64,000 nucleotides of DNA. Source: Nitratiruptor tergarcus DSM 16512. GTDB taxonomy: Bacteria > Campylobacterota > Campylobacteria > Campylobacterales > Nitratiruptoraceae. A program made the translations under genes and the position numbers. The notes under the pieces are model-generated. The model was not told the origin of the DNA, did not search any database, and saw only the letters and a list, made by a program, of their open reading frames with translations. Of the stretch, positions 7,206 to 61,929 are shown piece by piece. Where the stretch lies: the NCBI RefSeq assembly GCF_027946175.1, contig NZ_AP026671.1, positions 868,001-932,000 of the forward strand, in the 5' to 3' direction. Every line of letters begins with the position of its first letter. The first letter of the stretch is position 1.

Positions 7206-8260
7206 TTTTTTGTATAAGTCCAATACATATGGCACTCATAATGATTTTCAAGAAGGTATTGTACCGGAGATTTAAAATTAAGAGAAGAGTGTGGTATTTT
7301 GGTATTGTAATCGATGAGCCATTTTGCTAATTTTTTATTGAATTCATCCAAATCTGTAAAGAGTAAATCTTCATAGTATTGAATAAATTGTTCTTGAATT
7401 GTTCTATTAAATCTCTCATTGTGTGCATTCATTTTAGGGCTCCTTGGATATGTCCAGTAGTGTGTAAAGCCTTTTTGTTCAAGCAGAGCATCAAACTCTT
7501 TTTTAAATTCACTGCCATTATCTGAAAGAATTGCAAGTTTACGTTTTTGTTTGATGGAAGTTATTCCATCAATTAAAGCTTCAAGAGCATATGCAGTATG
7601 TCTTGCTCTTTTGGATGGAATCGCCACTGCGAATGCAATACGTGTGAGTGGGTCAATCATAGTAAGGATATATCGTTTTATACCGTTTGATACTATTTGG
7701 ATGGTATCGACTGCCCAGAGTTCAAATGGTTTAGATTTGAGGTTTTTTGGTTTTCTGTTTTTTTGTGTCTTCTTTTTTGGTTTCACTTTTCCTTTTGTAT
7801 CGATGCGGTAGGGAAAAAGTCTCATTGTATCTGGTGCTTTTGCGATTATTCTTCCTATTGTGGATTCCGAGGGAGTTTTAAGTTCTTTTTCTTCACAAAA
7901 AGGTTTAAGCAGGTGGTAGAGTTTTGCTTTGCCGATGTTGGGATATGCTTTTCTTAATCGTTTTATCTCTTTAATAACTTCTATTGGAACTTTTGACTCT
8001 CTTACTCTTTTTGGTCTTCGTGATTTTGGATTTAAGGCTTTTATATCGCCATCTGCATCATTGAAACTCTTTTTCCATCGAAAGAGTGTTCTTCTGCTTA
8101 CTCCAAAAGCTTCAGTTGTTGCTGCTAGTCCATATTTTTCCCAAAACTCCAATATCTTTTTTCTTCTTTTTGCCTCTTCGCTTATCATAAGCGAATTGTA
8201 GTATATCCTCTCTAATCTTTTATATCCTTTGAGCCCTGGCAACGTGTATTTGATTTGCAC
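7190..8260 (-). CDS. IS481-like transposase, copy 1 (intact)
   Basis: This 356-aa DDE transposase has an N-terminal helix-turn-helix (EKYGLAATTEAFGVSRRTLFRW, about residues 41-62), a second HTH-like region near 90-140, and an rve integrase core. The catalytic triad is visible as D185 (LWAVDTIQI), D247 (LSDNGSEF) and E282 (NAHNERFNRT), with the D-35-E spacing expected. A single ORF without frameshift fits IS481 better than IS3. The stop codon lies outside the element: the last six residues (KNLQIL) and the TAA are encoded by host DNA within the rpsO promoter region. It is 98-99% like the neighbouring copy over the shared part. Confidence 0.85.
   Translation of the reverse strand: MQIKYTLPGLKGYKRLERIYYNSLMISEEAKRRKKILEFWEKYGLAATTEAFGVSRRTLFRWKKSFNDADGDIKALNPKSRRPKRVRESKVPIEVIKEIKRLRKAYPNIGKAKLYHLLKPFCEEKELKTPSESTIGRIIAKAPDTMRLFPYRIDTKGKVKPKKKTQKNRKPKNLKSKPFELWAVDTIQIVSNGIKRYILTMIDPLTRIAFAVAIPSKRARHTAYALEALIDGITSIKQKRKLAILSDNGSEFKKEFDALLEQKGFTHYWTYPRSPKMNAHNERFNRTIQEQFIQYYEDLLFTDLDEFNKKLAKWLIDYNTKIPHSSLNFKSPVQYLLENHYECHMYWTYTKNLQIL
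7211..7237. repeat. Left terminal inverted repeat of IS copy 1
   Basis: It reads TGTATAAGTCCAA then TACATATGGCACTC and matches the complement of the right end (8279-8306) with one gap and three mismatches. Only copy 1 retains this end; copy 2 lacks it. Confidence 0.8.
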
Positions 8261-17364: not shown

Positions 17365-18531
17365 TTAAACATCTAAAACTTTAAAAAGTATCCCTGTAAG
17401 ATAGAGCGAAAATTCATTATTGAGTATATAGGGGTGATCTACATCTTGGAAAAGATACTCAACAATCTCTACAACTTTCTTATTATCAATGCTACTTTGC
17501 ATGATAACTTGCTCTAGATCTTTAAGCCCCACATGATGCGAGCAAGAAAAGAGTGCAATATAACCCTCATTGCGGATTAATTTCATTGCATTTACAGTGA
17601 TATCTTTAAAGCCTTTTAATGCAGAACTCTTTTTTGATCTGCTTTTGGCAAATGATGGGGGATCAAGGATAATAACATCAAATTTCTCCTTCTGTTTGCG
17701 TAGCTCTCGCAAATAATCGAACACATTTGCTACTACAAATTTTCCTTTAACATCATTCAACATAAAATTCTCTTTTGCCAGAGCAATTGCATCTTCTGAG
17801 ATATCTACTAATCGTACATCTGCATCTTTTTTTACTTTTGCATAGAGACCAAATCCACCAGCATGGCAAAAACAGTCAAGGATCTTATCTTTTTGTTTAA
17901 TGTAGCGAGAGACAATTTGGCGATTGCGTCTTTGATCAAGATAGAAACCTGTCTTTTGCGCATCTATGAGATTGACCTGAAATTTTATACCATTTTCTAC
18001 AAAAAAGACGCGCTCTGGTATCTCACCTATTATTTCATTAAAAGGTTCAACCTTCTCTTTACGTAAAGAGTTTTTTTCTCCTTCAATATATACTCCTTTT
18101 GGCTCATAGAGATTAAGAAGAATATCTAATATCTCCTCTTTAAAGCGCAAAATCCCAGCTGTAAGAAACTGCACACTAAGATACTCTCCATACCTATCTA
18201 CTATAAGACCAGGAAGGTAGTCTCCTTCAGAGTGTATAACCCTACAAGCATTATCAAAAAGCTTTACTCTCTTTGCTGCTGCACGCAATATACGTGATTT
18301 AAAAAAACGATAATTGATTGGCTCATCTTTTAATGAAAGTATGCGAATTGTAATAGTGCTCGCAGGATTAATATATCCTACTGCCAAAAATTGTTCATTT
18401 TCATCAAATATTTTTACGAGCTCACCAGCTTCATACTCCTCTAATGGACTTATAATATCACTCTTATAGACCCATGGGAAAAATTCATGAACCTTTTTTG
18501 CTGCCTTTTTATTGATAATACATCTTTTCAT
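17365..18531 (-). CDS. rlmI: PUA-domain rRNA (cytosine-C5)-methyltransferase, RlmI/RlmO type
   Basis: This 388-aa cytoplasmic enzyme has an N-terminal PUA RNA-binding domain (GELVKIFDENEQFLAVGYIN) and a Rossmann SAM-methyltransferase core: DCFCHAGGFGLYAK (motif I), VRLVDISEDAIALAKEN, and the catalytic DPPSFAKS motif. RlmI methylates 23S C1962; the exact target here is an inference. It sits three bases downstream of folP and ends just before ligA. Confidence 0.85.
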   Translation of the reverse strand: MKRCIINKKAAKKVHEFFPWVYKSDIISPLEEYEAGELVKIFDENEQFLAVGYINPASTITIRILSLKDEPINYRFFKSRILRAAAKRVKLFDNACRVIHSEGDYLPGLIVDRYGEYLSVQFLTAGILRFKEEILDILLNLYEPKGVYIEGEKNSLRKEKVEPFNEIIGEIPERVFFVENGIKFQVNLIDAQKTGFYLDQRRNRQIVSRYIKQKDKILDCFCHAGGFGLYAKVKKDADVRLVDISEDAIALAKENFMLNDVKGKFVVANVFDYLRELRKQKEKFDVIILDPPSFAKSRSKKSSALKGFKDITVNAMKLIRNEGYIALFSCSHHVGLKDLEQVIMQSSIDNKKVVEIVEYLFQDVDHPYILNNEFSLYLTGILFKVLDV

Positions 18532-60281: not shown

Positions 60282-61720
60282 GTCTCAATCCCCTTCAAAT
60301 CGGGTCTGTATTGAAATTTTTGATAAAGCTGTAGAAGATGAAGCAATAGAGAGAAAGTCTCAATCCCCTTCAAATCGGGTCTGTATTGAAATCTGAGTCC
60401 TATCACAACTCAACCCCTTTGGCAGGTCTCAATCCCCTTCAAATCGGGTCTGTATTGAAATCTTCAAAACAATAGAAGAAGCAAGAGACTACAAGGAAAA
60501 CCAGTCTCAATCCCCTTCAAATCGGGTCTGTATTGAAATAAAGAAAAATGTCTGAAAGGAGTGTCTGATGAGAGCATGTCTCAATCCCCTTCAAATCGGG
60601 TCTGTATTGAAATATAGACGAACTTCCAAAAGAGATTGAAATAGAAGCTGAAGTGGGTCTCAATCCCCTTCAAATCGGGTCTGTATTGAAATAAGCTTGC
60701 GCTGTCAAAGTTGTTAGACTTGATTAAGTCTGTCTCAATCCCCTTCAAATCGGGTCTGTATTGAAATCCCCTTTGTGGTAAACAGAGTAGAAAACGGTGT
60801 GTCTCAATCCCCTTCAAATCGGGTCTGTATTGAAATTCATTACGCCCGCGAAGCATTTAGAACCAGCGGGCTTGAGTCTCAATCCCCTTCAAATCGGGTC
60901 TGTATTGAAATAGTTAGATAAATATGTCAAAGAGCTTAAAGAATGGTTGTCTCAATCCCCTTCAAATCGGGTCTGTATTGAAATTTTGCCGTTGAGGCAA
61001 GCACAAAAGAAGAGTTAGATAGTCTCAATCCCCTTCAAATCGGGTCTGTATTGAAATTTGTAAACTTTTATGCTGCAAGACGTGGAGAGTTTGGTCTCAA
61101 TCCCCTTCAAATCGGGTCTGTATTGAAATAAGTTGAGTATGAAAGAGTAAATACTATGTTACCGCGAGGTCTCAATCCCCTTCAAATCGGGTCTGTATTG
61201 AAATTTGACGCGAAAAACAAAAAACAGGAGGTGCAAAGATGAGAGTCTCAATCCCCTTCAAATCGGGTCTGTATTGAAATTAGAGAGCATTTTAAAGAAC
61301 ACAGAGACTGGGTAGAAACAGTCTCAATCCCCTTCAAATCGGGTCTGTATTGAAATAAAACAAACACCTCTCAAAAAAAGAGAGGAAGGGCGAGGGCAGT
61401 CTCAATCCCCTTCAAATCGGGTCTGTATTGAAATAATTTTATGACGTAACGAACACCAAGAGAACAGTCTCAATCCCCTTCAAATCGGGTCTGTATTGAA
61501 ATTCTTTAAGAGAAGAGATTGAAAAAAGAAAAGAAGTCTCAATCCCCTTCAAATCGGGTCTGTATTGAAATCTTCTAAAAAACCCCCCCAAACACTACCA
61601 AATAGCAACAAGTCTCAATCCCCTTCAAATCGGGTCTGTATTGAAATAGGGCTTCTCCGCTATACAAATCAAAAAGCCCTTTTTGTCTCAATCCCCTTCA
61701 AATCGGGTCTGTATTGAAAT
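60282..61720 (-). CRISPR. CRISPR array, 20 repeats and 19 spacers
   Basis: Twenty identical 36-nt repeats (on +, beginning GTCTCAATCCCC and ending CTGTATTGAAAT) start at 60282, 60357, 60426, 60504, 60578, 60657, 60732, 60801, 60876, 60949, 61022, 61094, 61169, 61245, 61321, 61399, 61467, 61536, 61612 and 61685. Spacers are 32-43 nt (mean 37.8). On the - strand the repeat ends GAAGGGGATTGAGAC, so a stem CCC/GGG is followed by an 8-nt ATTGAGAC handle, the arrangement of Cas6-processed type I/III crRNAs (Thermus type III uses AUUGCGAC). I therefore infer - strand transcription with the leader at 61721-61929. No repeat is degenerate. No cas gene is in the window, so the class is a guess, type III favoured. 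Confidence 0.97.
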
Positions 61721-61929
61721 AGCAACATTAAGTTTTCAAATACCCATAAAATCGATATACTAGTGTAACAGCAGTTTTCTTAAAAATTGCTTTAATACTC
61801 ATATTCTGCACCACTCAGTAGAGTGCAATCCCTTCAGAACGGCACTTTCAGGTTTGTTTAATACTTAAATGAAACTTTAATAAATAGACCTTTTCATACA
61901 CAATTTGAAAGAATATAGGCTTTAAATGA
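61721..61929 (-). promoter_or_regulatory. Presumed CRISPR leader with structured region
   Basis: This 209-base gap between the rhodanese stop and the array is AT-rich and has no ORF. It contains a repeat-like hairpin region at 61812-61846 (next entry). A weak -10-like TAGTAT is visible on the - strand around 61760; I see no convincing full promoter, so read-through from the aroG-rhodanese operon is also possible. Confidence 0.45.
61812..61846 (-). repeat. Lone repeat-like hairpin motif in the leader
   Basis: On + the core CAATCCC-TTCAGAACGG (61826-61842) matches the array repeat CAATCCCCTTCAAATCGG at most positions (one gap, three changes). It lies inside a GTGC/GCAC stem (61823-61845). An overlapping alternative hairpin CACTC-AGTA-GAGTG (61812-61825) shares the GAGTG, so the two folds exclude each other. 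It is 105 bases from the first repeat, too far to be a normal array unit. Confidence 0.45.

What the first reader, a model, noticed from the sequence alone, without database searches (positions are those of the whole stretch)
60282..61720. CRISPR array probably read from the - strand, with spacers mostly antisense to target mRNAs
Seen: on + the spacers total about 63% purine by hand count (13 of 19 are at least 57% purine) and many read as coding sense on + (for example FDKAVEDEAIER, IDELPKEIEIEAEV, VNFYAARRGEF, REHFKEHRDWVET). In AT-rich genomes coding strands are purine-rich. Seen: the repeat on - ends GGGG-ATTGAGAC, a stem followed by an 8-nt handle like those made by Cas6; on + the tail after GGG is 13 nt. 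Known: type III systems need crRNA complementary to the transcript. Inference: the array is transcribed from - and its crRNAs are antisense to phage or plasmid mRNA, so it serves an RNA-targeting system or one that acquires from RNA (RT-Cas1).
Basis: partly seen in the sequence, partly recalled or inferred. Interest (0 to 1): 0.72.

Follow-up and report, generated by a model that had tools for sequence, protein, structure and literature searches.

The report
Remote type III-A CRISPR guide array
This is a CRISPR memory bank of the vent bacterium Nitratiruptor, read from the minus strand and storing guides that face the messenger RNA of its viruses; its RNA-targeting (type III-A) machinery is encoded about 170 kb away, so it is a clean but largely known kind of array.

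Summary
In detail: 20 identical 36-nt repeats and 19 spacers, 62.7% purine on +, 13 of 19 at or above 57%. The minus-strand reading is well supported. (1) The 170 nt flanking the high-coordinate end are a leader, homologous (71-79%) to leaders of six other arrays in four genomes (this one included), always abutting the same repeat edge. (2) The repeat's 3' 25 nt (GACCCGATTTNAAGGGGATTGAGAC) is shared with both arrays of the genome's type III-A locus, 170-190 kb away. (3) Codon statistics of 19 crRNAs antisense to coding sequence. (4) Across 22 arrays with this repeat core, 23 of 284 spacers carry a Shine-Dalgarno plus ATG on the strand complementary to the crRNA and none on the crRNA strand. 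The genome does carry RT-Cas1, but this leader matches the plain Cas1-Cas2 array, and RT-less relatives show the same bias, so RNA acquisition is not needed. The array is already published as DSM16512C4 of N. tergarcus, and antisense bias in type III spacers is known. New: the orientation proof, the remote dependence, the tie to plain Cas1-Cas2, and an unexplained roughly 3.7-fold excess of translation-start sites among type III spacers.

The parts
60282..61720 (-). CRISPR array, 20 identical 36-nt repeats and 19 spacers; crRNA-strand repeat ATTTCAATACAGACCCGATTTGAAGGGGATTGAGAC
61721..61890 (-). leader, directly abutting the first repeat; reads leftwards into the array
   Evidence: 71-79% identical to leaders of six other arrays in four genomes (own genome included), each abutting the ATT/GTT edge of its first repeat
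61648..61684 (-). spacer 1 (leader-proximal); complement resembles an intrinsic terminator, AGGGCTT...AAGCCCTTTTT
61205..61244 (-). spacer 7; complement holds a translation start, AGGAGGTGCAAAGATG
60985..61021 (-). spacer 10; overlaps spacer 11 in target by 9 nt, together one open frame on +
60912..60948 (-). spacer 11; see spacer 10
60837..60875 (-). spacer 12; overlaps a spacer of the genome's type I array, shared viral gene (HYAREAFRTSGLDLVMRD on +)
60693..60731 (-). spacer 14; homologous to another type I spacer (IKLALSKLLDLIKS on +)
60540..60577 (-). spacer 16; complement looks like a gene junction: stop TGA, AAGGAG, ATG
60393..60425 (-). spacer 18; 32 of 33 match to Nitratiruptor phages NrS-4 and NrS-5, untranslated region upstream of the leftward operon that includes exonuclease VIII and RecT
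   Evidence: same match published in PMC9723563

Best explanation
A remote guide array of a type III-A (Csm) CRISPR system. A leader at 61721-61890 drives transcription leftwards (minus strand). Cas6, encoded about 185 kb away beside cas10 and csm2-5, would cut each repeat after GGGG to leave the 8-nt handle ATTGAGAC, and the crRNAs load into the Csm complex. Most crRNAs are antisense to viral mRNA, so the complex recognises transcripts and triggers Csm3 RNA cutting, the Cas10 HD DNase and Cas10 cyclic-oligoadenylate signalling to Csx1 and CARF-RelE. New spacers probably enter through the plain Cas1-Cas2 that serves the array with the same leader, from DNA; the antisense bias is best explained by survival of cells holding functional (mRNA-facing) spacers. 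Shown by sequence: array, leader homology, shared repeat core, cas genes with motifs, strand bias. Inferred: transcription, Cas6 cut site, loading in trans, choice of adaptation module, selection as the cause.
For: Leader homology to six other arrays, always on this edge. The core GACCCGATTTNAAGGGGATTGAGAC is the constant, handle-side part in 22 arrays while the other 10-12 nt vary. Complete type III-A locus: Cas6, Cas10 with HD at 14 and GGDD at 623, Csm2-Csm5, Csx1, Csx20, Csx23, CARF-RelE, Cas1, Cas2. The two arrays at that locus end in truncated repeats on the trailer side, fixing their polarity independently. Strand bias: 16 of 19 here, 188 of 266 in other arrays. Translation-start motif 23 on the complement, 0 on the crRNA strand. 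Sister-array protospacers in annotated genes of NrS-1 and NrS-2/NrS-4 are antisense to the gene. The 3' flank of the NrS-4 protospacer matches the handle's anti-tag at only 2 of 8 positions, so it would not be taken as self. Selection without acquisition bias is documented for Thermus type III (PMC7515739).
Against: No RNA data. The only protospacer of this array found in a collection is non-coding, so its transcript direction is itself inferred. On + the repeat ends ATTGAAAT, which resembles the common ATTGAAA(N) handle, although that half is not conserved among relatives. Three of 19 spacers are called sense. The codon model is partly composition-driven.
Confidence: 0.85

Rival explanations
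1. RT-Cas1 at 1.113 Mb (intact RT with FADD motif, maturase-like domain, Cas1) feeds this array with spacers copied from viral RNA, which is why they are antisense.
For: RT-Cas1 is present and intact, followed by its own 8-repeat array with the same repeat core. The leaders share a short block TGGRTATTTGAAAACT. Purine content exceeds that of average coding strand. RT-Cas1 acquires from RNA in Marinomonas (PMC5576922).
Against: Outside that short block the leader matches the plain cas1-cas2 arrays and not the RT-Cas1 arrays of the two genomes examined that have both; the RT-Cas1 arrays have 37-nt repeats starting ATTTACCTATT, this one has 36. RT-Cas1-less genomes at least 90% complete show the same bias, 141 of 200. 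In Marinomonas RT-Cas1 orients spacers only weakly (PMC5576922).
Confidence: 0.12
2. The array is transcribed from + with the ATTGAAAT handle and serves the genome's type I-B system or another system.
For: The + strand repeat ends ATTGAAAT, like many type I handles. A type I locus (cas3, cas4, cas1 and others) exists, and its spacers share targets with this array.
Against: The type I repeat (TTTATATCCCACAATTGGATGCTAATAT) is unrelated. The conserved leader is on the other side. With + transcription most crRNAs would be sense to mRNA.
Confidence: 0.03
3. The strand asymmetry is a composition preference of spacer acquisition (purine-rich strand) and has nothing to do with transcripts.
For: Purine content on + (62.7%) is above the coding average.
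Against: Composition-preserving shuffles of the spacers give 2.3 translation-start motifs against 23 seen, all on one strand; overlapping spacers form reading frames with synonymous differences on +; sister spacers hit annotated genes antisense.
Confidence: 0.06

Closest known systems
CRISPR_DSM16512C4 of Nitratiruptor tergarcus DSM 16512 (PMC9723563)
   Same: Almost certainly this very array: same single spacer match (s18, the same number as when counted from the leader here) to NrS-4, 32 of 33; same total of 79 spacers in four arrays (43+19+10+7 here); subtypes I-B and III-A.
   Different: The main text of that paper does not mention a reverse transcriptase, strand bias of spacers, the leader, or which cas locus serves this array. 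The held assembly differs slightly in length from the one tabulated.
Type III-A (Csm) CRISPR-Cas
   Same: Complete csm locus with HD and GGDD Cas10, CARF effectors, and two arrays sharing the repeat core.
   Different: This array lies about 170 kb from the locus; none of the genome's three cas1 genes is near it.
RT-Cas1 type III systems: clade 2A, mostly Campylobacterota (PMC6013744), and Marinomonas III-B (PMC5576922)
   Same: The genome encodes an RT-Cas1 fusion with an adjacent array of the same repeat core.
   Different: The effector is III-A, a second plain Cas1-Cas2 is present, and this array's leader belongs to the latter. Clade membership was not tested by a tree.
General coding-strand bias of type III spacers (PMC8482600; Thermus, PMC7515739)
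   Same: Same direction of bias; 65% on average there, about 70% of calls in RT-less relatives here.
   Different: Here inferred mainly from codon statistics and translation-start motifs rather than from mapped protospacers; stronger in this array (16 of 19).

Membership tests
Type III-A CRISPR array | repeat shared with arrays at a csm locus of the same genome | tested here: met
   3' 25 nt differ by one base from both csm-locus arrays
Type III-A CRISPR array | complete cas10-csm2-csm3-csm4-csm5 with cas6 in the genome | tested here: met
Type III-A CRISPR array | 8-nt 5' handle produced by Cas6 | not testable with these tools
   sequence compatible (GGGG/ATTGAGAC); needs small-RNA sequencing
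Type III-A CRISPR array | crRNAs complementary to target transcripts | tested here: met
   codon of 19; 2 translation starts on the complement and 0 on the crRNA strand in this array, 23 and 0 in the family; by inference from sequence, not from RNA
RT-Cas1-fed array | RT-Cas1 encoded in the genome | tested here: met
RT-Cas1-fed array | leader and repeat length of the RT-Cas1-linked array | tested here: not met
   leader and repeat length match the plain cas1-cas2 array
RT-Cas1-fed array | spacers acquired from RNA | not testable with these tools
   needs acquisition assays
Type I-B array | repeat of the genome's type I locus | tested here: not met
   unrelated repeat

The most novel reading that the evidence does not exclude
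Type III spacers of this repeat family are drawn to, or kept at, translation start sites: 23 of 284 distinct spacers carry AGGAG/GGAGG + 2-10 nt + ATG on the mRNA strand (0 on the other), against 6.2 expected from the sense strand of phage NrS-4 and 0 of 70 type I spacers from two genomes of the same family. Targeting the ribosome-loading site could give better access to nascent RNA or add a translation block to immunity. Not excluded: targets simply come from regions packed with very short genes.
Probability: 0.3. Interest if true: 0.6.

Novelty: new member of a known kind. Interest (0 to 1): 0.38.

Why it matters
It shows that array orientation can be settled from sequence alone by leader homology plus strand-specific translation-start motifs, without mapped protospacers. 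The genome is also a natural comparison: one Csm effector fed by arrays of two adaptation modules, RT-Cas1 and plain Cas1-Cas2, so whether antisense bias comes from acquisition or from selection becomes directly testable. The excess of translation-start sites, if general, would be a new rule for which type III spacers are acquired or kept.

Tried and rejected
Protospacers: 19 spacers against the phage and plasmid collections gave one real match, NrS-4/5; the other two type III arrays' spacers gave none in phages. Seven IMG/VR scans with back-translated or exact patterns gave no true protospacer; the four hits share only a short peptide. 399 genomes of the order: only short 89-91% matches in two genomes, not accepted as protospacers. 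A tblastn with the merged peptide found nothing in phages. Promoter scan around the array: at chance level, no use. Rfam: nothing in the window and only chance hits at the NrS-4 site. Counting open frames per strand: uninformative. Hairpin enrichment in spacers: significant overall but mostly from one genome, G020; weak in this array. Type I spacers as strand control: the crRNA strand of that array was not established, so only its lower purine bias (51.8%) and lack of translation starts were used.

Full report
What is there. The window holds a CRISPR array at 60282-61720 with 20 identical 36-nt repeats and 19 spacers. It is the only place in the 1.94-Mb genome with this repeat at up to 3 mismatches. 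None of the genome's three cas1 genes is near it; the flanking frames were not formally annotated.

Where it comes from. The spacer totals by array (43, 19, 10, 7 = 79), the I-B plus III-A systems, and the single spacer matching phage NrS-4 at 32 of 33 equal those published for Nitratiruptor tergarcus DSM 16512, array DSM16512C4 (PMC9723563). The relative G010 has exactly the chromosome length tabulated there for strain YY09-18.

Orientation. A block of about 170 nt from 61721 upwards, read on -, is conserved at 71-79% in six other arrays (four genomes in all), and ends where the repeat's ATT/GTT edge begins. That is a leader. The repeat's other half, GACCCGATTTNAAGGGGATTGAGAC, is constant in 22 arrays across the order while the first 10-12 nt vary, as expected for the stem and handle read by Cas6. 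Two of those arrays sit at the genome's type III-A locus, and both have a truncated last repeat on the side opposite the leader, which fixes their polarity independently. The RNA fold of the minus-strand repeat contains the CCC/GGG stem and is somewhat more stable than shuffles (z -1.9); this is weak support.

Which system. The locus at 1.097-1.116 Mb encodes Cas6, Cas10 (HD motif, GGDD at 623), Csm2, Csm3, Csm4, Csm5, CARF-RelE, Csx1, Csx20, Csx23, Cas1 and Cas2 with one array, and divergently an RT-Cas1 fusion (RVT_1, maturase-type domain, Cas1; FADD motif) with another. A separate type I locus with 44 unrelated repeats lies at about 1.428-1.439 Mb. By repeat and leader the window's array belongs with the type III-A locus. 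That the Csm complex uses it in trans is inference.

Strand of the targets. A codon model trained on this window of 19 crRNAs antisense (p 0.004; the model is 84% accurate on held-out fragments, so essentially all could be antisense). In 21 other arrays the call is antisense for 188 of 266 (p 1e-11). Because this model leans on composition, I sought a marker that does not: Shine-Dalgarno plus ATG. Of 284 distinct spacers, 23 carry it on the complement and none on the crRNA strand (p 2e-7); composition-preserving shuffles give 2.3. Overlapping spacers give longer reading frames: 10+11 here, 1+2 in the cas1-cas2 array, and spacer 12 with a type I spacer differing by a synonymous base. In the sister strain's arrays, protospacers in NrS-1 and in NrS-2/NrS-4 genes are antisense to the gene. 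Spacer 18 matches the untranslated stretch between NrS4_20 and NrS4_19; its complement reads in the direction of the leftward operon that starts about 180 nt downstream, so it probably faces a 5' leader RNA, but that transcript is inferred. Its 3' flank has 2 of 8 matches to the anti-tag, so it would count as foreign.

RT-Cas1 or not. Of 22 genomes with the repeat core, only G000, G010, G009 and G042 have full-length RT-Cas1. In G000 and G010 the RT-Cas1 array has a 37-nt repeat beginning ATTTACCTATT and its own leader, whereas the plain cas1-cas2 array has a 36-nt repeat and the leader type seen at the window's array. RT-less genomes at least 90% complete still show 141 of 200 antisense (p 6e-9). 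So neither the leader nor the bias calls for RNA acquisition. Published work agrees: type III spacers favour the coding strand at about 65% (PMC8482600), in Thermus this arises by selection and not by acquisition (PMC7515739), and RT-Cas1 itself orients spacers only marginally (PMC5576922).

What is left over. Translation starts are not only strand-specific but more frequent than the sense strand of NrS-4 predicts (23 against 6.2; 2.2% per window there, 2.8% in its early region), while 70 type I spacers have none. Target regions rich in short genes could explain it. I found no paper reporting it, which is a limited search.

Verdict. The finding is right in its observation and in its main inference, with the RT-Cas1 option disfavoured for this array. 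The array and the general bias are known; the remote dependence, orientation proof and two-module comparison are modest additions.

Noticed in passing
284 distinct spacers of 22 arrays (window, L012, L013, L067-L082): Type III spacers carry Shine-Dalgarno plus ATG on the complement in 23 cases and never on the crRNA strand, about 3.7 times the expectation from phage NrS-4; 0 of 70 type I spacers do.
   Followed up: partly
L069, L070 (genome G020) spacers; also L013 spacers 1 and 2: Many spacers are near-perfect hairpins resembling intrinsic terminators (12 of 36 in G020 with stems of at least 7 bp, against about 3% of random windows), so gene ends as well as gene starts may be over-represented.
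   Followed up: partly
L012 and L013 (G000:C1:1097962-1115960): One type III-A effector with two adaptation modules, RT-Cas1 and plain Cas1-Cas2, each with its own array, leader and repeat length; strain YY09-18 (G010) has the same layout.
   Followed up: partly
L067 (G010) against L012/L013: RT-Cas1, Cas1, Cas6 and Csx1 are 76-94% identical between the two strains but Cas10 and Csm3-5 only about 24-47%, suggesting that the effector cassette was swapped; cas6 in G010 matches in two pieces, possibly a frameshift.
   Followed up: no
window spacers 5, 12, 14 and L014 type I spacers 32, 36, 40: Type III and type I arrays of the same genome hold neighbouring or overlapping pieces of the same sequences, so both systems target one virus lineage not found in the collections.
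   Followed up: partly
L012 about 7850-7965; L067 about 17990-18100: A shared repeated element (GTGAGCGAGGGCAAAACG...AGTCCTAAAATC) abuts truncated repeat fragments at the trailer ends of type III arrays in both strains.
   Followed up: no
window 61823-61852: Inside the leader a stretch TGAAGGGATTGCAC (on -) resembles a decayed copy of the repeat's 3' half; the aligned relatives' leaders lack it.
   Followed up: no
L045:2930-3180 (phage NrS-4): The protospacer of spacer 18 lies in an unusually GC-rich, structured-looking intergenic stretch next to a palindromic operator-like sequence; no Rfam family matches.
   Followed up: partly
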